From a virus, in IMG/VR virus record IMGVR_UViG_3300042381_000722, positions 1 through 34,286 of that record: a stretch of DNA of 34,286 bases. One strand, given 5' to 3'. The position numbers and the translations under genes were made by a program. The notes beneath the pieces are model-generated. The model was not told the DNA's origin. It saw only the letters and a program-made list of their open reading frames with translations, and did no database searches. Each line of letters opens with the position of its first letter. Position 1 is the first letter of the stretch. Shown here in pieces: positions 5,144 through 18,144 of the stretch.

Positions 5144-6538
5144 CTATTGTTGCAAAATATACCCGGGGTTGGCGCGGACTCGGAACCCAGAGCTTACAGT
5201 TGATGTGTTGGAGATGCTAATGACCCACCTTTGGGTAGCGGCAGAAAATGTTGTCGGCACGTTGTTGGTAACGGTGGCCAGCAAAGTGCTTTCGCCACGA
5301 TAAAAACGAGCTACGCCAGATTCAGAAACCGCCCAAAACACATCCGGTCCAAAATTATGCGTCAAGGCCACAGCGTTGGTTGTCTCAAAAAGCGTTGTTC
5401 CGTCATGCGTTTCAAAAAACATATTGTTACCGTTTACTCGGATGCCCATTCCTCGCTCATCAAGTGGGCCGTGGTTCGTAACGCTTGCGTTTCGCCCAAA
5501 TTGCATCCGAACCTCTACGTTAGTGCTAAAACGATTAAACGACCACGCTGCGACAACCCGCCCTTGCCACACCGTGTTGCCACCAGTTCCAGACAATGTT
5601 TGTTTAGACCCAAAATAACCGCGATAAAGGCTGGAGCTTGCGCTGTTTGTGCTGGTGGTTAGGTCAAAGCCATTTACGTCAATGGCCCCTCCTCCTCCAT
5701 TAGTTGAGTGAACTGTTCCCATGTCTGACCTAATTTGGTCAAGCAACGCCAACTGGCCAAACAACCGAAAATCGGACAACTCCCGCGTCATCAGACTCGA
5801 CGCACTGCTCGCCGTCTGCGATGGCGCAGTGTTGCCGACGCCGCTCATGGTGACGTTGCCGGTGACTGCCAGCGTCCCGCCGACCACAGCGTTGCTGGAA
5901 ACCGTCATTCCAGTGCTGCGGAAGGTCGCTACGTCTGAAAGAGCGTTGCTGCTGGCCCCGACGGCCAAAGCAATTTGAGCAGTGCCAGGGTAGCCGCCAT
6001 AAATTGCTGCGTGCTGCGAGCCGCCGAGGCCGCTCCACTGAATGCCTTGTGCGGCGGCGGCGTTGGTCGCTGGCGTGGCGGTCGAGTCATTGGCCGTCAA
6101 AATTCCGTCCGCCGTGATGTTGCTGAAGGTGACGTTGTTGGTTGCGCCGAGGCCGAGGTTGGTGCGGGTGGCTGCCGGAGTAAGAGAAGAAACTGTGTTG
6201 TCCGCGTTGATTCGGAGATAAAGTTCCTGATACTGTTCGGGAACAGTAAATATATTTCCACCCACAATGCTTGCACCAAGAGCAGTTCTGGCAGCGTTAG
6301 TTGTCGCCGCAGTAAAAACCGCATTGCCCACCGTGGTCCCGCCCAAGTTGGTGCGCGTTTCTGCTCGGGCGTTGGTCGAAAATTGCAGCTGGTTGGTAAA
6401 GGTCAGCGCGTTTGTGCCACTGTAAACGACTTGTCCGTTGGTTGTGTTGTAGCCCAAGCTCTTGATCGTTTGCCCTGCGGCGGGAGCGGCAGCCAGGGCG
6501 GCGGCGGCGAGGAGAAGGATTGAGAGGCGACGTTTCAT
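5144..6538 (-). CDS. Tail fibre-like protein with N-terminal signal peptide
   Basis: A 464-residue protein. Residues 1-22 are a textbook Sec signal: MKRR, a Leu/Ala core, then cleavage near AAG/Q. Next come repeated fibre motifs (ETRTNLGGTTVGN, NAARTALGA, AATRTNLGLGATN) as in trimeric phage tail fibres, a Ser/Thr/Asn-rich shaft (about 120-240), and a C-terminal beta domain (about 310-464) with a lectin-like feel. Fibre repeats say host recognition; a signal peptide is unexpected for a cytoplasmically assembled virion. It could instead be an exported or surface protein, or the hydrophobic start could be a membrane anchor. Confidence 0.75.
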   Translation of the reverse strand: MKRRLSILLLAAAALAAAPAAGQTIKSLGYNTTNGQVVYSGTNALTFTNQLQFSTNARAETRTNLGGTTVGNAVFTAATTNAARTALGASIVGGNIFTVPEQYQELYLRINADNTVSSLTPAATRTNLGLGATNNVTFSNITADGILTANDSTATPATNAAAAQGIQWSGLGGSQHAAIYGGYPGTAQIALAVGASSNALSDVATFRSTGMTVSSNAVVGGTLAVTGNVTMSGVGNTAPSQTASSASSLMTRELSDFRLFGQLALLDQIRSDMGTVHSTNGGGGAIDVNGFDLTTSTNSASSSLYRGYFGSKQTLSGTGGNTVWQGRVVAAWSFNRFSTNVEVRMQFGRNASVTNHGPLDERGMGIRVNGNNMFFETHDGTTLFETTNAVALTHNFGPDVFWAVSESGVARFYRGESTLLATVTNNVPTTFSAATQRWVISISNTSTVSSGFRVRANPGYILQQ

Positions 6539-6548
6539 TAGGCTTTCG

Positions 6549-7076
6549 TTATTTGCTGGCTGTCAAAATTCCATCGTTGTCGATTGTCACGGTCCACAGG
6601 CTTGAGTCTGGAGCCAGCAGCTTAAACGAGGCCGCTGCGGTCACCGTCGGCACACCTTCGCCGCCACGGATCACATCGTTAAAAACAGTCGCGCTTGTCG
6701 GCAGCGTGGAGGAGGTCGTTCCGCTTTCCGTCCATTCAATTTCCACTTTTGCGGTGATGGAGTCCTCGGTGTCTAAGGGAAATTCCGCGTTGAGGTTTGT
6801 GGTGTTGAGGTTGAGGTCGAACTGATAGACGGTGGTTGTCCCCGTGCCGGTTTTGGTGAACGAGGCGTCATTTGCGAGGAATGAGCCAGCGAAGGTCTTT
6901 TTAAGCCCCATCTGGCCCGTTGCGCCGGCTGCCAACTCAACCACCGTCCCACCGCGCACAAACTGAACTTGGACAGGCACGATGTCGCGGCGTGTAAAAA
7001 AGAGCGTGCTTACCCGCTGCAACAAAACAGGAGAAACAACGAACTCGCGGGAATCGAGGTTGACGTAAACGCGCAT
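6549..7076 (-). CDS. Beta-rich virion protein (baseplate/fibre-associated)
   Basis: A 175-residue protein starting MRVYVNLDSREFVVSP, rich in beta strands, with Thr-rich segments (about 90-105) and the C-terminal module SLWTVTIDNDGILTASK shared with the protein at 3996-4208. Such proteins recur beside fibre genes of related phages. The role is probably distal tail or fibre attachment. It sits between the RmlC-like cupin and the fibre gene in the late operon. No enzymatic motif is seen. Confidence 0.65.
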   Translation of the reverse strand: MRVYVNLDSREFVVSPVLLQRVSTLFFTRRDIVPVQVQFVRGGTVVELAAGATGQMGLKKTFAGSFLANDASFTKTGTGTTTVYQFDLNLNTTNLNAEFPLDTEDSITAKVEIEWTESGTTSSTLPTSATVFNDVIRGGEGVPTVTAAASFKLLAPDSSLWTVTIDNDGILTASK

Positions 7077-7106
7077 GGCCTTGCCCTCGTCGCCTGTGTC
7101 AAAGGG

Positions 7107-7535
7107 TCAGCGAGACTGAACGTCCCATTGAAATGGGAAGGCAAACGGCCCCCGGCGGTCTTCATCTGGATCGGCGGGGTCGTATTCGTGGGAGGGCAAG
7201 TTGAGAATGGATGCCTCGCGGTGGCCGTGGCACGGCGTAAAGCCGTGGAATAAGCCAGCCGGGATGACCAAAAGCTGCGGGTGGTCGGCGGCAAGGATGA
7301 TCGTCTCGCCGCGCATTGCCTCGGCGTCCCAAATGCCGACCTTGGCCGCGCCAGCGACGCAATACCAACGGTCTACTTGCAGCCGATGGCGATGCCAGGC
7401 TTTGACCACGCCTGCCGCTGCCGTGGTGATGTATGCCTGGCCAAAGCCGTGCGCGTCATCGCTTGCGCGGTGGATCTCGGTGAGCCTGCCACGCTCATCG
7501 AGGTGGGCGGTGAGTGGGCGCAGCTGGGCTAACAT
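7107..7535 (-). CDS. RmlC-like cupin (dTDP-4-keto-6-deoxyhexose epimerase family)
   Basis: A 142-residue protein. I place the start at ATG 7535, which overlaps the glycosyltransferase stop by seven bases; the frame is open to 7706, but that part is a shadow. Cupin/RmlC hallmarks: VVKAWHRH (His48, His50), QVDRWYCVAGAAKVGIWD, QLLVIPAGLFHGF (His97) and the tail LNLPSHEYDPADPDEDR, typical of dTDP-4-dehydrorhamnose 3,5-epimerase relatives. It may epimerise a nucleotide-linked deoxysugar, or simply bind sugar. Coupled to a glycosyltransferase within virion genes, it points to glycan synthesis for particle or host-surface modification. Confidence 0.8.
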   Translation of the reverse strand: MLAQLRPLTAHLDERGRLTEIHRASDDAHGFGQAYITTAAAGVVKAWHRHRLQVDRWYCVAGAAKVGIWDAEAMRGETIILAADHPQLLVIPAGLFHGFTPCHGHREASILNLPSHEYDPADPDEDRRGPFAFPFQWDVQSR

Positions 7536-8551
7536 GGCATGAAGGGCTGCTGCCGTTGTCGAAGGTGGCCGCGATACTCGCCTTCGGTTTCGTGGTAAGC
7601 CCGGTGGTGGACTACCTCCCCCTTGGCGTCCCGCTTCACATGGTCCGCCGCCGTGTGCGGGATGGCCGCAATGCGGAGCCCGTTGGGGTTCCACCTGTGC
7701 CAGCAAAGGAACAGGTCTTGAGTCCCTTGCCCTTGGTAGCCTTCAAAGGTTGCAAGAGCCAAGGCCCGGGCAGAGAGCAAGGTGCAGCCCAACCCGCACC
7801 AATCAGACGGGACGATGGCCCCCCTGCCAAGCCCAGGGTAAGCGAAGTCCATCCATCCCCTGCGCCGCCAGCCGTGTTTGCCGCTCACTTCAAACACGTT
7901 GCCATCCGGCGGGCATTTCTTCACGCGCTCGGCCAGCCGCCCGAGGCGCTTGCCCTCCTTTTCGCCAATGGCTTTGTCCTGGCAGTCCTTGAGTCGGGCT
8001 CGGCAGGCTTCCAGTGCGCGGACAAGGCGGGGCGGGAGTTTGCGTTCCTTCTCGGTGAAGTCCTCCTCGATTGGCCGCTGTGGCGTCCCGCATCCCCCGA
8101 GGAAAAGACCGTTGGGGTAGGTGACGGCGGCGACATGGTAAAACGGGCTGCCGTCCTCGGTTGGCATGGCCAGCGCCCACTCGGCCACGCGAAGGGCATC
8201 AGGCGGGACAAGGTTGTCGGCCTCGACAGACCACAAGGCCGTGGCTCGGATCTTCCTGGCTGCGGCGAATGCGGCCCCTTGCAAGGCAGCAATCCGCATT
8301 TGCGCGTCTACCTGGTAGTTCTTGCCCTCAAAACCGCCGTCTTCCATTGGCAGGGCAATAGCTTGGATGCGCCAGCCTTCGGGCAATTCAACTCTTGCGG
8401 CCTCAATGGCCGCTTTTGCCTCGTCGGACTGATCCGTGGCTAATATGAAATGCGCCTCGGCGTGGTGGCCGGCTGCGGCGGCAATGCGCCGGAGGAACTG
8501 CGGCCAGACGTGGAAATACGAACGGGTTGCGTAGGTGGCTATGGCTAACAC
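7529..8551 (-). CDS. Putative glycosyltransferase (GT-A-like)
   Basis: A 340-residue protein from a GTG start (8551). The N-terminal region alternates strand and helix like a GT-A nucleotide-sugar-binding fold and reaches LWSVEADNLVPP (about 106-117), where EADN takes the place of the DxD metal motif. The C-terminal half has a conserved-looking core around DFAYPGLGRG, SDWCGLGCTLLS and GTQDLFLCWHRW, as in acceptor-side regions of phage glycosyltransferases. A helical, charged insert lies at about 165-215. Its 3' end overlaps the RmlC-like cupin, and the Ser/Thr-rich tail protein lies just upstream. Donor and acceptor are unknown. Confidence 0.72.
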   Translation of the reverse strand: MLAIATYATRSYFHVWPQFLRRIAAAAGHHAEAHFILATDQSDEAKAAIEAARVELPEGWRIQAIALPMEDGGFEGKNYQVDAQMRIAALQGAAFAAARKIRATALWSVEADNLVPPDALRVAEWALAMPTEDGSPFYHVAAVTYPNGLFLGGCGTPQRPIEEDFTEKERKLPPRLVRALEACRARLKDCQDKAIGEKEGKRLGRLAERVKKCPPDGNVFEVSGKHGWRRRGWMDFAYPGLGRGAIVPSDWCGLGCTLLSARALALATFEGYQGQGTQDLFLCWHRWNPNGLRIAAIPHTAADHVKRDAKGEVVHHRAYHETEGEYRGHLRQRQQPFMPC

Positions 8552-8569
8552 TCGCGGGCGGGCGGCGTG

Positions 8570-10402
8570 TCAAGCGTTAGGCGGCATGGTCGGCGGCAGT
8601 GCCGTGCTGTTGCGGGCCTCGGTCCAGTAGCCAAATGAAGGACGAGTCTCAACGTCTTGGCCCAACGGCGGCCCAAGGCCTTGGATGGGAAAAAAGGAAG
8701 ATAGCGGCAAGCTGGTGGAAAATGTTGTGGCCCCGCGCCGAAATGATGATGTTTCGCCGCCAATGCGGTTGCGGTAAACGCCATCTGTGCCAGCCACGTT
8801 GGCAAAGGTTTCGCCCGCTGCCGGTGATCCGCCCCAGATGCCAATCGGCCCAGAATCAAAAACGGTTGTTGTTGAATTGCCCGACACTTGCAGAATGGCG
8901 CTGGAGGTGGTCGTGGCTGACTGCCCAGAGATTAGGGTGGTCTTTGTAAAAGTAATACTGTCGCTGTTGTAAGTGACGTACTGCCCTGTGGTTGGCATCA
9001 AAGTGGTCAGAAACGAGCGGCCATCGTAAACGTAGGTTCTTTCCTCAAGCGTGTCGGAAACATCTAGGACAAACCAATACCCGCTGGCCGTTCCAACCTT
9101 GGCCGCCCTCGGGACAAATTTGGATTGAGACAAAATGTTTCCCATAGTTAGCCCGCAAATGGGCAACTGCGGCAGATAGGTGTTTTGGTCTATGGTTTTG
9201 CCGCTGGTGTATCCGCCCTCCGATCTAAAAGAGCTTCGCTCATCGTTACCGGGGAAGTCTGAATCAGTAGTTTGGCCCGAAACTGTATAAGAGGTTGAGC
9301 TTTGCGATGCCTCACACAAAGCAATCGGCGCGGTGGTCGTGAGCGAGTAGGCCGTTGTCGTTGTGCGTGGCGCGTCCCAAGTTAGCAGGGAGCCACTGTA
9401 AAACGTGCCAGGAGTTGCATTGTTCGACACGGTGGCCAAACTCAAAACGCGGGTGGTCGCATCCGTGGCCTCCACATTGCTTGCATCGCTGTAGAAGAGA
9501 GTTACGCCAAACGATTCCGTAGTTGATCTTGCGATGGTTGGCGTAAAGGTCAGCGTTTCGTTGGGCAAATCTCCAAGAAGAACAAAGGTGCTAATGGTGC
9601 TAGTGGGCGCAGTCGTTGTGTATTGGCTCTGGTATGTGCTGTCTGCGTAACTGTAGCTGTGCGATGAGTTGCCCGCCACCCCGGTTGAGCTTTGGCTGGT
9701 GCTGGCAGTGACCTTTGGCAATGCCGTTAAGACAACGAGTGGCGAAATGGTTAGCCGGGTAGTTGATGTAGCGCGGTCAGTGGCGGCAGTTATTCCGCTC
9801 CAATTCGTGATTGAACTGTAATACCAAATCACCTCCGAGCCTGCGGCCTGCAAAATAGTATCGGCCAAACCGCTTGAAAGAACTGTGCTGCTCGTGGTTG
9901 TGGCGTCTAGGGTGACAGTGCCTGTTTGTGCGCTCGTCGTGTTTTCCGTTGCACCTGTTGAAACCGTGAAAAAACTACTGCTGGAATAAGACCACCCCGA
10001 GCCAGTGGTGGCCGTGGTCAGGCTGACCGCAAATGTGTATTCGGCGGTTGTGGTTGTGCTAGTTTGCGCGGCAACAGAAATTAGCGAGGCTGTCGTGATT
10101 CCGCTTGAGGAGGTTGTAAAAGATTCGGCAGAAGAGGTGGGGTCATAGAGCGGCGAGTCGCTTGTTCCGGCAGTTGAATGGCTAGAGAAAAAGCTGAAGT
10201 AAGTCGTAGACCCGCTTGCGCCGTGGCTTGTGTAAGAAATTCCGCTTGTTGTCGTGGTTCCAGAAGCAGGAAAGCTGACAGTTATTCCTCCGGCTCCTGT
10301 TACAGTTTGCGCGCTGCTCACAGTGCTGCTGGCTGAGTCGCCAGCCGTCTCCTCAGTGTAGCCGGTCAGGACTTTTGCCCGTGGGATTGTCCAGGCGATC
10401 AT
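8570..10402 (-). CDS. Large Ser/Thr-rich distal tail protein
   Basis: A 610-residue protein. In the first 100 residues I count 44 Ser or Thr, with runs such as SGTTTTSG and SAESFTTSSSG; this continues to about residue 330 before a more mixed C-terminal third. It begins MIAWTIPRAKV, starts in an ATGA overlap with the upstream gene (10399-10402) and has no signal peptide. Composition suggests an extended beta-rich fibre or an O-glycosylated surface protein. By order after the tape measure and two tail proteins it may carry a tail-tip or host-contact function. Its glycosyltransferase neighbour makes it the most obvious glycan acceptor; this is inference. Confidence 0.7.
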   Translation of the reverse strand: MIAWTIPRAKVLTGYTEETAGDSASSTVSSAQTVTGAGGITVSFPASGTTTTSGISYTSHGASGSTTYFSFFSSHSTAGTSDSPLYDPTSSAESFTTSSSGITTASLISVAAQTSTTTTAEYTFAVSLTTATTGSGWSYSSSSFFTVSTGATENTTSAQTGTVTLDATTTSSTVLSSGLADTILQAAGSEVIWYYSSITNWSGITAATDRATSTTRLTISPLVVLTALPKVTASTSQSSTGVAGNSSHSYSYADSTYQSQYTTTAPTSTISTFVLLGDLPNETLTFTPTIARSTTESFGVTLFYSDASNVEATDATTRVLSLATVSNNATPGTFYSGSLLTWDAPRTTTTAYSLTTTAPIALCEASQSSTSYTVSGQTTDSDFPGNDERSSFRSEGGYTSGKTIDQNTYLPQLPICGLTMGNILSQSKFVPRAAKVGTASGYWFVLDVSDTLEERTYVYDGRSFLTTLMPTTGQYVTYNSDSITFTKTTLISGQSATTTSSAILQVSGNSTTTVFDSGPIGIWGGSPAAGETFANVAGTDGVYRNRIGGETSSFRRGATTFSTSLPLSSFFPIQGLGPPLGQDVETRPSFGYWTEARNSTALPPTMPPNA

Positions 10403-11034
10403 GGCCCGAGCAGATAATAGATGTCGTAAGGCGACTCGCCCGGGGCCGCAACAGGGTTGGCGCTGGTCACTAGCCAGGTGCGAGTTGGCAGGACAATTTG
10501 CCCCGCCCCGATGACGCGATAGACGCTGCCCTCGGAAAACAGGCCAAACAGATATTCCACCGATGCGGCAATGCCAAACTCCACCGGCTCCTGCACAGTG
10601 GGCGGCGTGGCGTCGATCTCAATGGTCACGCCAGTAATGGCCTCGCCGTCCGTGGCAAGGACGGCCTTGGCATACCACAAGCCCGTGCCGGGATACTCAA
10701 ACTCCTCGTCCCAGTTGCTAGGCAAGATGCCGTTAGCCGTGCCAGGGCGCACGCGGACAAGGTAGGGTGGTGTTGCGTCCTCGGGTGCGGCGTCAGGGTC
10801 TACGCGGGCAACCAGATCCCAAGGTTGCGTGGTGGCGGGCGTCGAGCTGCCGCCAAAGACAGAGGCAGCAAGGTCAACCCTCACCCCAAGACCTTCTTGC
10901 CGTAAAGTAATGCCTCGACCTGGCAGCGGCTTATTGCGTTTTATTTCTGCCAGAATCGAGTTGAAACGATCTGCGGAAATCTCATTTAGCAGTGGTCGGT
11001 TTGCCAAAAACCTTATGGAATTGAAATCGGCCAT
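10399..11034 (-). CDS. Distal tail/baseplate protein
   Basis: A 211-residue protein. The N terminus is helical (SIRFLANRPLLNEISADRFNSILAEIKRN), followed by a beta-rich domain with a Thr/Pro linker near 65-72. It sits two genes after the tape measure and is coupled to the Ser/Thr-rich protein. Gene order suggests a component of the tail tip. I recognise no family, and no catalytic motif is evident. Confidence 0.6.
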   Translation of the reverse strand: MADFNSIRFLANRPLLNEISADRFNSILAEIKRNKPLPGRGITLRQEGLGVRVDLAASVFGGSSTPATTQPWDLVARVDPDAAPEDATPPYLVRVRPGTANGILPSNWDEEFEYPGTGLWYAKAVLATDGEAITGVTIEIDATPPTVQEPVEFGIAASVEYLFGLFSEGSVYRVIGAGQIVLPTRTWLVTSANPVAAPGESPYDIYYLLGP

Positions 11035-11035
11035 A

Positions 11036-11692
11036 CTACTCGTAGCCGTAAAGCGTTTCCACGTCTTCCCAATCGCTAAAGTTCAAAGTGTACTCTCTAG
11101 TCACTTCGTATCTTTCGCCAATGGGGCTTGCTGTGACTGAAGTGCAGATCCAAAAATTTCCTTCAGGAGCAGTAAGCTCGGGAGGGTTGGCCACCTTGGC
11201 AACGATTGAAAGGTCCGGCAGCGTGCTTTCAAACTCCGAAACTCGTCCGACAATAGCTGGAGCTAAAGCGTAATCGACTTTGCGCCGCAAAAAATTGTAA
11301 AGTAGTTGCTGCGTTTCATCTGCAAATGTTGCCCAAAAGTCAGGTTGCGGGTTTTCAATTTTGGTCAGAACTTCAGCTATTTGAGTTTCGGTCAAAAGTT
11401 TAAAAGCGGGATGCGTCTGAATGGGAACCTCTCTTGTGCCGCCAGTTAGCTCAACGCGCTTGCCATACTGGTTGTAGGTCGCGCTGCTTTCGCTTGCTGC
11501 TGCCGTGTACTCAAAAATAGCACGCTGAACGCCACCGGCTTCTTGCGTGATGCTGCTATTGGTCAAGATATAGCCGGATGGCGAACTCGGTACTGATATC
11601 TCCTCACCGTCCGTGCCAACTACAACTTTGCGAATTATCGCCCTGTCTCCGCTCAAAGTAGAGCCGCCGCCGATTGTTTCAAATTGTGCCAT
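11036..11692 (-). CDS. Minor tail protein
   Basis: A 218-residue protein immediately downstream of the tape-measure gene (two bases apart). It is beta-rich, with a helical middle (TETQIAEVLTKIEN and TQQLLYNFLRRKVDYAL, about 95-145). Its position corresponds to the distal tail or tail-completion genes of siphoviruses. No family could be named from sequence. It is probably coupled with the next gene, whose ATG lies just after its stop. Confidence 0.6.
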   Translation of the reverse strand: MAQFETIGGGSTLSGDRAIIRKVVVGTDGEEISVPSSPSGYILTNSSITQEAGGVQRAIFEYTAAASESSATYNQYGKRVELTGGTREVPIQTHPAFKLLTETQIAEVLTKIENPQPDFWATFADETQQLLYNFLRRKVDYALAPAIVGRVSEFESTLPDLSIVAKVANPPELTAPEGNFWICTSVTASPIGERYEVTREYTLNFSDWEDVETLYGYE

Positions 11693-11694
11693 AA

Positions 11695-13146
11695 TTAAGA
11701 GGATGACGGCAGGACAAGTGGCCCGCCTTTTTTGAGAATTTCCAGTATTGATTTTGCAGCCTCTGCTGCCCTTTTGGTTTCTTTGTTGGGATCTTCCCTG
11801 CGGCGAGCGTCAAATGACTCGCTTGAGGCAAATCCGATGCGCTGCAAGCCCGATGCGCCAGATGTGCCGGTCAAAGCGCCCTCTTTTCCCATCTGGCCCT
11901 GCAAGGCCATGATGCGGCTAATTGCCTGCTGCTTTTCCAATTCTACGCCTGGGCCGCTGAATCCTTCCAAGTCGGCCAGCCCCTGCATCTCAAAGTCCAT
12001 TTGCTCCTGCGGAGTCATGGCGGCTTTTTGGTTGGCTGCCGCTTGCTCCTGAACAGACTTAAGGGTTGTTCTCTTTTTTTGCGCTTCTACTTCCGCTGCT
12101 TTGGCTAGTTCGTTTTCTAGGGCAATTTGACGCTGTTTGCTTTGTTCAATTTTAGTGTTTATCTCCAGCACCCGTGCTTCAATTTCGGCAAATGATCTTG
12201 CGCCAGAACTTGCCCCGACTGCTTCCCCCGCCAGTTTTTCTTGCGTGATTTTTTCCTCGTCCAACTTTTCTTGGGTGGACATTCCGGCCTGTCTTGTCTT
12301 TTTGCTTTCTGCTGCAAAGGCGGCTTTTGCTTTTTCAACTCTTTCTGCGTCGGTCGTTCTGTCTTCAACAGCAAACCGCCGCTCGTTGTCTTCCATTGCG
12401 TTTCTGATAAAAAGCCCCTCTTGTGGCGTTTTTGCATTATTTAGTCGTTCTTGCAGCGCGGCCTGCTCCCTTTCTCTGGCTTGAGTAACGGCCAAAGCAT
12501 CAACCGCCGCGCTGCCACCCGATCCCATTGCGGCTTGTCTTTCTTCCGCCTGCTTAAGCTGTAGCGCGGCAGACCCAGACAGGGCTGAAGCGGCGGCATT
12601 GCCCATCGACTTAATGGCGGCTCCCATTTCGGCAAATGCGGCTCCTCCCGTAAGTGCATTGGCAATGACTGCGCCAAAGTCAGACTGAAGAGCTGAAAGG
12701 TTGGCTTGAGCCGCCTTGACGGATTGCTGCAACTGGTCAAAACCAGTAATGGCCGCATCCATTGTCGTGGCATTGGCAACCGCCGCATAATTGCTGTTGA
12801 ACTCCTGCAAGTTCTTTGTGCTATTGGCGACCCCTTCGGAAAGTTTGCTGAATTGGCCGGCGACAATTTGCCCAATAGCAAAACCGCCAATGACTGCTGT
12901 GACCTTGCCAAAAGCACTGGCCACTCGCGTGGCCACTGCTTGAAAGGCTTCGGCTGGTGTCGAGGCTGCGGCTAGATCAGTGCCAAGCCCCTTTAATGCG
13001 CGGCGTATGCCTTCCCCGCCGCTCCCGCCTCCGGGCGTTGCCGCCTTGGTCGCCTCGCGGCCAAAAGCCTTGGCATCGTTAAGGGCCGACTGAAAACCCG
13101 TCTTGGTCTGGTTTTCGGCAACAACTTTTACCCTGACCTCGCTCAT
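11695..13146 (-). CDS. Tail tape-measure protein
   Basis: Sets tail length and occupies the tail lumen before DNA ejection. The 483 residues are Ala/Gln/Glu/Lys-rich and largely helical or coiled-coil (about 190-400). A single hydrophobic stretch lies at about 82-106 (FGKVTAVIGGFAIGQIVAG), typical of the membrane-inserting part of tape measures. The start MSEVRVKVVAENQTKTGFQ matches the N-terminal pattern of many tape measures. At about 0.15 nm per residue it predicts a short tail of about 70 nm. Its ATG overlaps the upstream stop as ATGA. Confidence 0.85.
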   Translation of the reverse strand: MSEVRVKVVAENQTKTGFQSALNDAKAFGREATKAATPGGGSGGEGIRRALKGLGTDLAAASTPAEAFQAVATRVASAFGKVTAVIGGFAIGQIVAGQFSKLSEGVANSTKNLQEFNSNYAAVANATTMDAAITGFDQLQQSVKAAQANLSALQSDFGAVIANALTGGAAFAEMGAAIKSMGNAAASALSGSAALQLKQAEERQAAMGSGGSAAVDALAVTQAREREQAALQERLNNAKTPQEGLFIRNAMEDNERRFAVEDRTTDAERVEKAKAAFAAESKKTRQAGMSTQEKLDEEKITQEKLAGEAVGASSGARSFAEIEARVLEINTKIEQSKQRQIALENELAKAAEVEAQKKRTTLKSVQEQAAANQKAAMTPQEQMDFEMQGLADLEGFSGPGVELEKQQAISRIMALQGQMGKEGALTGTSGASGLQRIGFASSESFDARRREDPNKETKRAAEAAKSILEILKKGGPLVLPSSS

Positions 13147-13697
13147 GCCGCCCTCCTTTTTGCTTTGCTTTTCAATATGGCGATGCGCTCGGCGTCGGTC
13201 ACAATCTCAAGGTTTGAGCCGCACTCGGCCTCAAAGTAGGCTGCCTCGTACCAGCTCGCCACGCCAACCGGGGTGGCCCAGGCTTGCGGCTCGCTCATCC
13301 CAAGGCGCATTAGTCGCACCACAGTTGTGATGCTATTTGGTATGCGGGACGGTTCTGCGCGTGACTCCCCTGCCTTGGCTGTTTTGGCCCACATCTGAGG
13401 AGGCGCGCAAAAGTCGGCCACATAGGTTTTCCAGCGGGCAACCTCGCTTTCAAATTTAAGCCGGCGCAACTTCCATAGTCGGCAAGCCCATGAGTTCATA
13501 TCTGGCAGGGTTAGCCCTGGCCGCGAGCAAATCCACGCCGCAAGCCGCAGATCAGCCTCTGTGCCAAGCTGGCCGTGGTAGAATGGCGATGAGATGGCTT
13601 CTAGGCTGAAAGCGTGGCCAAGAGAAAGCGGAAACATTTGCAGTCCGCAAACTCGATGCGTTGCGTTTAAGAACGCTTCAGCGGCCAGCGAATCCAT
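13143..13697 (-). CDS. Putative tail assembly protein upstream of tape measure
   Basis: A 184-residue, mostly helical protein with several Trp (about 55, 65, 70, 85, 103 and 148). It lies between the major tail protein and the tape measure, where tail-assembly chaperones (lambda G/GT-like) are encoded. I see no obvious slippery sequence near its end, so a programmed frameshift product is not supported. The stop overlaps the tape-measure ATG. The functional label rests on gene order. Confidence 0.6.
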   Translation of the reverse strand: MDSLAAEAFLNATHRVCGLQMFPLSLGHAFSLEAISSPFYHGQLGTEADLRLAAWICSRPGLTLPDMNSWACRLWKLRRLKFESEVARWKTYVADFCAPPQMWAKTAKAGESRAEPSRIPNSITTVVRLMRLGMSEPQAWATPVGVASWYEAAYFEAECGSNLEIVTDAERIAILKSKAKRRAA

Positions 13698-13709: not shown

Positions 13710-14270
13710 TTACGTTCCTGCGAACGCTACCGTGGTAACTGTTTTGCGGACAAAATCCGTGTTGCTTAGTCGCAACTCAACGCGGATGGTGGAAGTGCTG
13801 GCGTGTGTGCCAGTGGTGACGGTGTCGCCGTCTAGCGTGGCAGTATTGATGGCCGTGCCTCTGATCGAGGTGCGGACCACATCGCCGGCTGTTTCGCTTT
13901 TTTCGGCTGAAAGAGTAGTAAAGGTAATGCCGTTTAGGGTGAAAGTGCTGGCCGTAAACGCCCCTAAAACTGTGGCCGAGGCCTCGGCGCGGGGATTGTA
14001 AAAGCGGACGCTAGGTGGCGCGGTGGAGGCAGTCCCGCTTTCAATCAGTTGCTCGTCGACCTGGGCGGTAATGGTGGCGTTAAGCACGTCATCCGAGCCA
14101 ATGGCAAAGCCGCCGAAGGTTGTGCCGATGGTTTCTGTGGTTGTTTCGGTGCGGACGTACTTGGAAAGAATGGTCGTGGTGACGCCATTTTTGTCCGCAA
14201 CCAGCAGCTTCTCAAAAGTCTTGCTTGTCGAAACGCTAAAGCCGGAAGCTACTCCATAGGTAATTGCCAT
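13710..14270 (-). CDS. Major tail (tube) protein candidate
   Basis: A 186-residue, beta-rich, Thr-rich protein starting MAITYGVASGFSVSTSKTFEKLLV, with a middle segment IGSDDVLNATITAQVD and a final strand DFVRKTVTTVAF. Size and position, between the tail-terminator-like gene and the chaperone/tape-measure pair, correspond to the siphovirus tail tube protein, which should be the most abundant tail subunit. The assignment is by order and composition. Confidence 0.65.
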   Translation of the reverse strand: MAITYGVASGFSVSTSKTFEKLLVADKNGVTTTILSKYVRTETTTETIGTTFGGFAIGSDDVLNATITAQVDEQLIESGTASTAPPSVRFYNPRAEASATVLGAFTASTFTLNGITFTTLSAEKSETAGDVVRTSIRGTAINTATLDGDTVTTGTHASTSTIRVELRLSNTDFVRKTVTTVAFAGT

Positions 14271-16392: not shown

Positions 16393-18144
16393 CTATGGCT
16401 TGGAGTCAAGGAAGTCAGGGTTCCTGCGCTTAAACACTTCTGCTCCAAATTTGTAAGCCTCGTTTGAGTTTTCCACATCGTAGATGGCATCCGTGGCGAC
16501 CTTGGGATCAAAGGCTGGGTGGTTGTGGAGAAACACAATGTCAGTGTCCAAGACAATGCCGGCCTTGCGGACACGGTGGGAAAATTCGGTGTCGGAATAG
16601 ATGCCGTGGTAATCACCGGACAAGATGCCGCCGTCGTTGCCAAGCCAGCCCAGCGTTGGCCGCGTGCAAATGAAAGTGACCATGAGGCCGTCGTTGCGGT
16701 GGCCGTCTTTGATGCCCAAAACCTTGGGCCGCTTGAGGTGCGGCTCTAGCGCCTGCCAAACAAGCTCGTCCCAAAAGAGCGGCGGCTCGATGTCATCCTG
16801 AGCGGTCACGATGATCTGACCCGTGGACGCCTTGACCGCCGCATTGTAGTTGGCCACTGCATTGCCGCCCACTTGACCCATGAGGCCGGCGGGAGATAGC
16901 GCGTGTTTGAAGCGCCCCAAGATGTCCCGCGTCTCGTCATCGTCCTCGGCAAACCCAAAGATGTATTCCACGGACTGCGGGTCTTTGGCGGCCTCTAGCC
17001 ATTTCTTGCGCGTCTCGGCGGCTTGTAGCGGACGCCCCCGAGTAGGATGGCAAACGCTTATTTTGCCACCACACTTTTTGAACCAATCCAATTCAAACTG
17101 GTCGGCGCGCTTGGTGTCGCCGTTGGCGCGCAGGGTACAGGCATAGAGGCCGACGCCTCCGAATCCATAAACCACCGGGCGGTGAGTCCACGGCACGATC
17201 TCAGGCACTGGCAGGGCCATAAAAGCCCTGGCATAAGCCAAGGCGTTTTGCGCCTCGTCGTTGTCTAAGCTGATGGCGGCAAGCTGCGCCAGAGCTTCCC
17301 TGCGCCAAGGGCTGACCCTGTAGGCTTCATGGAGCAGTGACTTCTTTGCGGGGAACACGGGTGTCCGCATGGCCAGTTGCAAATAAAGCTCGTAGCGTTC
17401 ATCGCCAGAAAGCGTCTCATGTTTCAGCGCCTCGATGGCCAACTCCATGCCTCGGGCGTCCTCCTTCATGCCGAAATGCTCAAGGCTGCCGTAGAACAGC
17501 CAGCGTGGGTCTTTCTCCCAGCCAGGCTGGCTAGACAGGATGCGCCAGTTGCGGCTGTTGCCCTGCTTTTCGGCGGCGGCATCCTTTTTTTCGTCAGGTG
17601 CGTGGACGATGCGAGCGTCTTCCCAGCGCACTTGGCCCTCCCCTGACTTGTCGAATGGCTCAAGATGTTCGTGAACAGCACCCTCCCAGCGTGCCGTGCC
17701 GGCCTTCCAGACGCGCTCGCGCAGGAGGTTGAGGCCGTTGTTGGTCAAGCGGTAGGGAATTAGAGCCAACGAGGTTGTGGCAGCCGTGTCAGAGAGATGC
17801 TGCCTGATAATCTCGCAGGACTCTTGCTCAATAATATCGTCCGTGTCGGCCCACATTAGCCACTGGTGGCCGTCTGCCTGGGCCATCTCGGTGGCCATTT
17901 GCCGGGCGTTGGCGAAGTTGTCCACATGGTCCCAAAACTGGAACGCCTCGGCGTTTTTGTATTCGCCCACCTTGCAGCCCATTTCTCGGGCAATGTCTAG
18001 GGAGCGGTCTGGCTCCCTGGCCCCGCAGGCCCGCACGATGTAAATGTGCGGCGTGAGCTTCTGGAAGCTCTCAATAAAACGCCCGATGTACGACTCGCTA
18101 TTGCCCGTAATAGCGACCAACGCCAAAGAATGTTGTGTGGTCAT
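16393..18144 (-). CDS. Two-domain family-2-like glycosyltransferase
   Basis: A 583-residue protein. Domain 1 (about 1-210) is GT-A/GT2-like: LALVAITGNSESYIGRFIES, then WLMWADTDDII with the metal motif D100-T-D102-D103, then RVWKAGTARWEGAVHEHLE. A middle helical, TPR-like section (about 215-345) follows. Domain 2 (about 355-583) looks like a second GT2 fold: ISVCHPTRGRP, FGFAEDDDETRDI and IIVTAQDDIEPP. It is a cytoplasmic enzyme, probably processive or bifunctional. It sits between capsid and neck genes, after the capsid terminator, so its level should be lower than capsid. The likely job is sugar transfer to virion proteins or to the host surface; donor unknown. Confidence 0.82.
   Translation of the reverse strand: MTTQHSLALVAITGNSESYIGRFIESFQKLTPHIYIVRACGAREPDRSLDIAREMGCKVGEYKNAEAFQFWDHVDNFANARQMATEMAQADGHQWLMWADTDDIIEQESCEIIRQHLSDTAATTSLALIPYRLTNNGLNLLRERVWKAGTARWEGAVHEHLEPFDKSGEGQVRWEDARIVHAPDEKKDAAAEKQGNSRNWRILSSQPGWEKDPRWLFYGSLEHFGMKEDARGMELAIEALKHETLSGDERYELYLQLAMRTPVFPAKKSLLHEAYRVSPWRREALAQLAAISLDNDEAQNALAYARAFMALPVPEIVPWTHRPVVYGFGGVGLYACTLRANGDTKRADQFELDWFKKCGGKISVCHPTRGRPLQAAETRKKWLEAAKDPQSVEYIFGFAEDDDETRDILGRFKHALSPAGLMGQVGGNAVANYNAAVKASTGQIIVTAQDDIEPPLFWDELVWQALEPHLKRPKVLGIKDGHRNDGLMVTFICTRPTLGWLGNDGGILSGDYHGIYSDTEFSHRVRKAGIVLDTDIVFLHNHPAFDPKVATDAIYDVENSNEAYKFGAEVFKRRNPDFLDSKP

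What the first reader, a model, noticed from the sequence alone, without database searches (positions are those of the whole stretch)
7107..10402. Glycosyltransferase and RmlC-like cupin beside a Ser/Thr-rich tail protein
A 610-residue tail protein (44 Ser/Thr in its first 100 residues) is followed directly by a GT-A-like enzyme and an overlapping cupin of the dTDP-deoxysugar epimerase type. The acceptor-plus-enzymes order inside the late operon suggests the phage O-glycosylates its own tail protein, perhaps to hide from receptors, proteases or antibodies. I know of glycosylated phage virion proteins in other groups, but not of this set.
Basis: inference. Interest (0 to 1): 0.62.

Follow-up and report, generated by a model that had tools for sequence, protein, structure and literature searches.

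The report
Phage tail-protein sugar-coating gene cassette
A virus from environmental metagenomes, probably infecting bacteria of the Verrucomicrobiota group, carries next to a very serine/threonine-rich tail-region gene an enzyme that probably attaches sugars to that protein; in dozens of related viruses the enzyme always comes with such a protein, and viruses that lack the enzyme lack the protein too.

Summary
In detail: the 610-aa protein has 44 Ser/Thr in its first 100 residues (36% overall), followed by a GT-A-fold enzyme and an overlapping cupin. Comparative tests strengthen the acceptor-plus-enzyme idea. In 67 different relatives the gene beside the glycosyltransferase (GT) encodes a 476-858 aa protein with 21-39% Ser+Thr, in 31 BLASTP clusters. 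Five relatives without GT or cupin carry a 228-329 aa protein with 14-21% Ser+Thr in the same slot. The pairing also occurs with genes convergent in another virus group and beside GTs only 37-38% identical. The GT has conserved catalytic-type motifs and no transmembrane stretch; its best structural neighbours are collagen hydroxylysine galactosyltransferases. I conclude, at about 0.66, that the cassette O-glycosylates its own Ser/Thr-rich tail-region protein. 'RmlC epimerase' is not established: the cupin belongs to a wider nucleotide-sugar cupin group, and about half of the GT-bearing viruses lack it. No glycan has been shown; shielding from antibodies or receptors is speculation. Phage virion glycosylation is known in mycobacteriophages; a GT paired with a hypervariable Ser/Thr-rich protein as an exchangeable cassette appears to be a new variant.

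The parts
8570..10402 (-). Ser/Thr-rich 610-aa protein (220 S/T, 36%); presumed tail-region virion protein and glycan acceptor
   Evidence: no family match; fold not predictable
7529..8551 (-). GT-A-fold glycosyltransferase, 340 aa; invariant E110-x-D112, D279, D303-H304
7107..7535 (-). cupin, 142 aa, nucleotide-sugar isomerase/epimerase type (PF14667); 7-nt overlap with the GT gene
10399..11034 (-). 211-aa gene that precedes the Ser/Thr-rich gene (4-nt overlap) in this and many related viruses; anchor of the exchangeable slot
6549..7076 (-). 175-aa gene that closes the slot on the other side; kept in relatives with and without the GT

Best explanation
The three genes form a tail-glycosylation cassette in the late operon. 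The host supplies an activated (NDP-) sugar, which the cupin, where present, may isomerise or epimerise. The soluble, probably metal-dependent GT-A enzyme transfers the sugar to Ser/Thr residues of the neighbouring 610-aa protein in the cytoplasm before or during tail assembly, so virions carry a heavily O-glycosylated tail-region protein. The cassette is exchanged as a unit against a shorter protein of ordinary Ser/Thr content that needs no GT. Shown by computation: gene order, GT-A fold, conserved catalytic-type motifs, and linkage of GT to Ser/Thr-rich partners. Inferred: virion location, enzyme activity, acceptor, sugar, and benefit.
For: The GT-adjacent ORF is the most Ser/Thr-rich ORF of at least 300 aa in nearly all relatives (rank 1 in all but 3 of the loci scored). 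Among 72 different slot proteins, all 67 with GT have 21.5-39.4% S+T and all 5 without GT have 14-20.6%, and none of those 5 has a cupin; Fisher p = 7e-8 per protein, p = 0.003 at cluster level. The GT is at least 80% identical to the window's in viruses whose slot proteins fall in several BLASTP clusters; profile comparison finds no homology between the window's Ser/Thr family and those of L149, L064 and L051. So the shared feature of the partners is Ser/Thr richness, not sequence. The pairing also occurs with genes convergent in another virus group (L033-L047), and next to GTs of 37-38% identity: L149, flanked by 31% and 55% S+T proteins, the latter a Ser-repeat protein, and L186, 29% S+T. 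GT-A fold with best PDB matches COLGALT1, Z 18.7, and LH3, both of which glycosylate polypeptide. No TM-like stretch. Tight gene spacing consistent with one late operon. The S/T-rich 13710-14270 protein keeps about 30% S+T in GT-less relatives, so it does not track the GT.
Against: No biochemical or mass-spectrometry data. GT-plus slot proteins are also longer than GT-minus ones, so the association could be with a type of tail protein rather than with Ser/Thr as acceptors. Only 5 GT-less proteins (3 clusters) were found, and the 0.21 threshold was read off the data. Most GT-plus viruses were found with the GT as bait, although their Ser/Thr content was not selected. Codon composition explains part of the Ser/Thr excess. 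A shared fold does not give the acceptor.
Confidence: 0.66

Rival explanations
1. The GT modifies the host's surface polysaccharide, the receptor of the Ser/Thr-rich adhesin, so that infected or lysogenic cells and debris no longer bind progeny. GT and adhesin travel together because one modifies what the other binds.
For: Adhesin type and GT would be expected to co-occur under this model too; seroconverting phages carry GT genes; the window has an integrase, so it may be temperate.
Against: The GT stays 56-95% identical while its partners lose all detectable similarity, whereas receptor modification predicts co-varying specificity. No GtrA/GtrB-type families among the window ORFs scanned and no membrane segment in the GT. 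It would not explain Ser/Thr richness of the partner.
Confidence: 0.15
2. The Ser/Thr-rich proteins are an inherently Ser/Thr-rich type of tail fibre, and the GT acts on a different virion protein (tail tube, capsid, or the 6549-7076/5144-6538 proteins) but is inherited in the same block.
For: The slot is exchanged as a block; other late proteins are Ser/Thr-rich, e.g. 13710-14270 at 31% and 5144-6538 at 23%; mycobacteriophages glycosylate capsid and tail tube (PMC12363180).
Against: GT-less relatives keep the tail-tube-like and 6549-7076-like proteins with similar Ser/Thr content, so only the slot protein tracks the GT. The link persists where the flanking genes differ (L033-L047, L149, L186).
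Confidence: 0.13
3. The GT glycosylates DNA or a nucleotide precursor (hypermodification).
For: Phage GTs are often DNA-modifying (cited in PMC12619734).
Against: The gene lies in the late structural operon beside the slot protein, not with nucleotide-modification genes; linkage to Ser/Thr content is unexplained.
Confidence: 0.03
4. Chance neighbourhood: an ordinary cargo (moron) GT with no functional tie to the Ser/Thr protein.
For: Phage genomes carry cargo genes.
Against: Linkage across 67 different partners, two gene orders and GTs down to 37% identity.
Confidence: 0.03

Closest known systems
Virion glycosylation of mycobacteriophages Che8, Corndog and Myrna (Freeman et al. 2023, as cited in PMC12363180 and PMC12619734)
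   Same: Phage-encoded GTs act on the phage's own structural proteins.
   Different: Acceptors there are capsid and tail tube subunits (glycans at the C-termini). Here the candidate acceptor is a hypervariable Ser/Thr-rich tail-region protein paired with its GT, in phages probably of Verrucomicrobiota. No tblastn match of this GT in the INPHARED phage collection.
Bacterial serine-rich repeat adhesins with dedicated GTs (SRRP with GtfA/GtfB; from memory)
   Same: Ser/Thr-rich surface adhesin next to the GT that glycosylates it in the cytoplasm; the L149 relative even has a Ser-repeat protein next to the GT.
   Different: GtfA/GtfB are GT-B fold (from memory) and the acceptors are exported; here the GT is GT-A and no secretion genes were seen.
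COLGALT1 / LH3 collagen glycosyltransferases
   Same: Nearest solved GT-A structures, polypeptide acceptors, solved with Mn2+.
   Different: About 15% identity, hydroxylysine acceptor, no recognisable sequence relationship.
Nucleotide-sugar cupins: Cap5F C-terminal domain, QdtA, 3ejk dTDP sugar isomerase, RmlC
   Same: Weak profile matches; DxRG...E, HxH and PxGxxHxF motifs.
   Different: Below the RmlC (PF00908) cut-off; RmlC catalytic Tyr position appears to be Asn; exact reaction unknown.

Membership tests
GT-A fold glycosyltransferases | GT-A Rossmann-like fold | tested here: met
   AF2 model pLDDT 79, pTM 0.74; 90 PDB matches with Foldseek E<=0.001, COLGALT1 Z 18.7, LH3, Mnn9
GT-A fold glycosyltransferases | DxD-like metal motif and conserved acidic catalytic residue | tested here: met
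   E110-x-D112, D279, D303 invariant in 33 relatives; ExD and GTQD also in L149. Metal binding itself not tested
CAZy GT2 (PF00535/PF13641) | Pfam gathering score | tested here: not met
   PF13641 17.4 bits against a cut-off of 27
PF14667 nucleotide-sugar cupin | Pfam gathering score | tested here: met
   36.0 bits against 28.7
RmlC dTDP-4-dehydrorhamnose 3,5-epimerase (PF00908) | Pfam gathering score | tested here: not met
   17.8 bits against 27
RmlC dTDP-4-dehydrorhamnose 3,5-epimerase (PF00908) | catalytic His and Tyr | tested here: inconclusive
   His of 'KAWHRH' invariant; the Tyr position appears to be invariant N112, judged by motif from memory, not by superposition
Mycobacteriophage-type virion glycosylation | phage-encoded GT in or near the structural genes | tested here: met
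   tight gene spacing within the late operon
Mycobacteriophage-type virion glycosylation | sequence homology to known phage virion GTs | tested here: not met
   no tblastn match among 50,697 phage records
Mycobacteriophage-type virion glycosylation | glycan on a virion protein | not testable with these tools
   needs mass spectrometry
gtrABC seroconversion cluster | GtrA flippase, GtrB, polytopic membrane GT | tested here: not met
   no such Pfam match among the window ORFs scanned and no TM stretch in the GT; very small ORFs not all scanned

The most novel reading that the evidence does not exclude
A widespread, exchangeable 'acceptor plus private glycosyltransferase' cassette lets phages switch between a sugar-coated, fast-evolving Ser/Thr-rich tail protein and a bare short one. 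One conserved GT recognises Ser/Thr-dense polypeptide rather than a specific sequence, giving these phages a mucin-like tail region.
Probability: 0.45. Interest if true: 0.75.

Novelty: new variant of a known kind. Interest (0 to 1): 0.58.

Why it matters
Phage virion glycosylation is experimentally known from few systems. Here a comparative signal points to a dedicated GT for a hypervariable Ser/Thr-rich tail-region protein across several virus groups. It gives a directly testable acceptor-enzyme pair, a GT family that seems to accept almost any Ser/Thr-dense polypeptide (useful for glyco-engineering), and natural GT-less controls.

Tried and rejected
Cupin ORF as 199 aa from the TTG at 7706: rejected; relatives start at the equivalent of the ATG at 7535. 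L096 as a GT-less case: rejected; its Ser/Thr-rich gene runs off the contig end. AF2 model of the Ser/Thr-rich protein: pLDDT 39, not used. blastn and tblastn against INPHARED: no match for the region, the GT or the cupin. PDB sequence search with the GT, single or profile: no match. NCBIfam: nothing above cut-off. Similarity between the GT and the two-domain GT at 16393-18144: none of note. First run of the GT-presence test in the slot table failed for a technical reason and was redone. Literature searches for glycosylated Ser/Thr-rich phage tail proteins found no precedent in the open-access library; subscription papers are not covered.

Full report
What is in the window. The window is a 34,286-base virus record with an integrase, TerL, portal, scaffold-like and major capsid genes, most genes on the - strand. 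Behind the capsid lie tail-region genes, then the three genes of the finding, then further late genes and an amidase. Gene spacing from 11692 down to 5144 is -7 to +30 nt, consistent with one operon; no promoter-like match was found inside 6500-11100. The Ser/Thr-rich gene is 8570-10402 (36% S+T; 44 in the first 100 residues, as stated), the GT 7529-8551, the cupin 7107-7535.

The glycosyltransferase. Pfam gives only a sub-threshold GT2 match. An alignment of 33 relatives shows invariant E110-x-D112, D279 and D303-H304 (H304 and the rest of the motif as printed there). The AlphaFold model (pLDDT 79, pTM 0.74) is a clear GT-A fold. The best solved neighbours are COLGALT1 (Z 18.7, 239 residues, 3.5 A) and LH3, both of which glycosylate polypeptide, followed by Mnn9. 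Other GT-A enzymes score within 2-3 Z units, so the acceptor class cannot be read from the fold. No transmembrane-like stretch.

The cupin. PF14667 is above its cut-off, PF00908 (RmlC) below. A profile search of solved structures gives weak but consistent matches to 3ejk (dTDP sugar isomerase), QdtA and Cap5F. The HxH, Asp and PxGxxHxF residues are invariant. The reaction (3,5- or 3-epimerisation or 3,4-ketoisomerisation) is open. About half of the different GT-bearing slots have the cupin nearby (33 of 67), and on the GT tree the cupin-less rows form mainly one large clade, so it tailors a donor in some viruses and is not needed in all.

Linkage to Ser/Thr-rich proteins. A scan of IMG/VR with the GT gave 80 loci. 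Next to the GT there is nearly always a large Ser/Thr-rich ORF, the richest ORF of at least 300 aa in the locus in all but three of the loci scored. In L033-L047, a group with other neighbouring genes, cupin and GT are on one strand and the Ser/Thr-rich gene is convergent, directly abutting the GT. GTs with only 37-38% identity keep the pairing: L149 in a genome drawn from the same phylum as the Chthoniobacter MAG and L186 (38% is its identity to the L149 GT). In L149 the GT is followed by a second protein of 55% S+T with a long Ser-repeat stretch. Profile comparison finds no homology between the window's Ser/Thr family and three others, so Ser/Thr richness persists where sequence similarity does not.

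A natural control. Baits other than the GT (capsid gene, gene 6549-7076, gene 13143-13697, and genes from GT-less relatives) found relatives in which the slot after the 10399-11034-like gene holds a different protein: L097, L107/L108, L165/L182 and L180 near the window, and L153 whose upstream genes resemble the L033-L047 group. All lack GT and cupin, and their slot proteins have 14-21% S+T and 228-329 aa, against 21.5-39.4% and 476-858 aa for the 67 with GT. The separation is complete; Fisher p = 7e-8 per protein, p = 0.003 when clusters are the unit. The threshold was set after seeing the data, the GT-less set is small, and length differs as well, so this is strong but not conclusive. The tail-tube-like protein, also about 30% S+T, is present in GT-less relatives too and thus does not track the GT.

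Interpretation. The simplest account is that the GT glycosylates its Ser/Thr-rich neighbour. The receptor-modification rival predicts that GT specificity changes along with the adhesin; instead the GT is conserved while the neighbour changes beyond recognition. The antibody-hiding purpose has no support. A contig holding a related phage region in a Chthoniobacter flavus MAG also carries a polysaccharide deacetylase and an SRP54-type GTPase gene, which suggests Verrucomicrobiota hosts; a second hit in a 3.4-kb contig of a Burkholderiales MAG may be a binning error.

Comparison with what is known. Phage self-glycosylation is established in mycobacteriophages, on capsid and tail tube (PMC12363180; PMC12619734). 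Neither the GT nor the cupin matches any of 50,697 phage records, and open-access literature searches found no glycosylated Ser/Thr-rich tail protein. I class it as a new variant of a known kind.

Noticed in passing
window 16393-18144 (-): A 583-aa protein with two GT2-like domains directly after the major capsid gene (PF00535 1.2e-7, phrog_13126 2.4e-14). It is kept in GT-less relatives and seems split into two genes in others (L005), so it is independent of the tail cassette and may glycosylate the capsid.
   Followed up: partly
L149:17173-18561 (+): 462-aa protein, 55% Ser+Thr, with a long Ser-repeat stretch (SSSSDSSLSSDSS...), directly downstream of a distant GT homologue.
   Followed up: partly
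window 5144-6538 (-): Fibre-like protein with a signal-peptide-like N-terminus (MKRRLSILLLAAAALAAAPAAG), also seen in relatives (MKTLL..., MKHLL...); unusual for a phage tail-region protein.
   Followed up: no
window 8570-10402 (-), residues 1-4: Short conserved N-terminal motif M-I-x-W shared by many otherwise divergent Ser/Thr-rich proteins, possibly a tail-attachment signature.
   Followed up: no
window 13710-14270 (-): Candidate tail tube protein with 31% Ser+Thr; stays Ser/Thr-rich in GT-less relatives.
   Followed up: partly
L048:11373-12176 (+): Gene downstream of the GT with a sub-threshold CBM5/12 carbohydrate-binding match and a Ser-rich stretch.
   Followed up: no
L064:11046-12017 (+) and the gene after the GT in L063: Similar 324-330 aa genes directly after the GT in place of the cupin; the one from L064 has no family match.
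   Followed up: no
L151:16066-18142 (+): Bacterial-type genes (polysaccharide deacetylase; SRP54-type GTPase) on the same 45-kb contig as a related phage region in a Chthoniobacter flavus MAG, suggesting a prophage and a Verrucomicrobiota host.
   Followed up: partly
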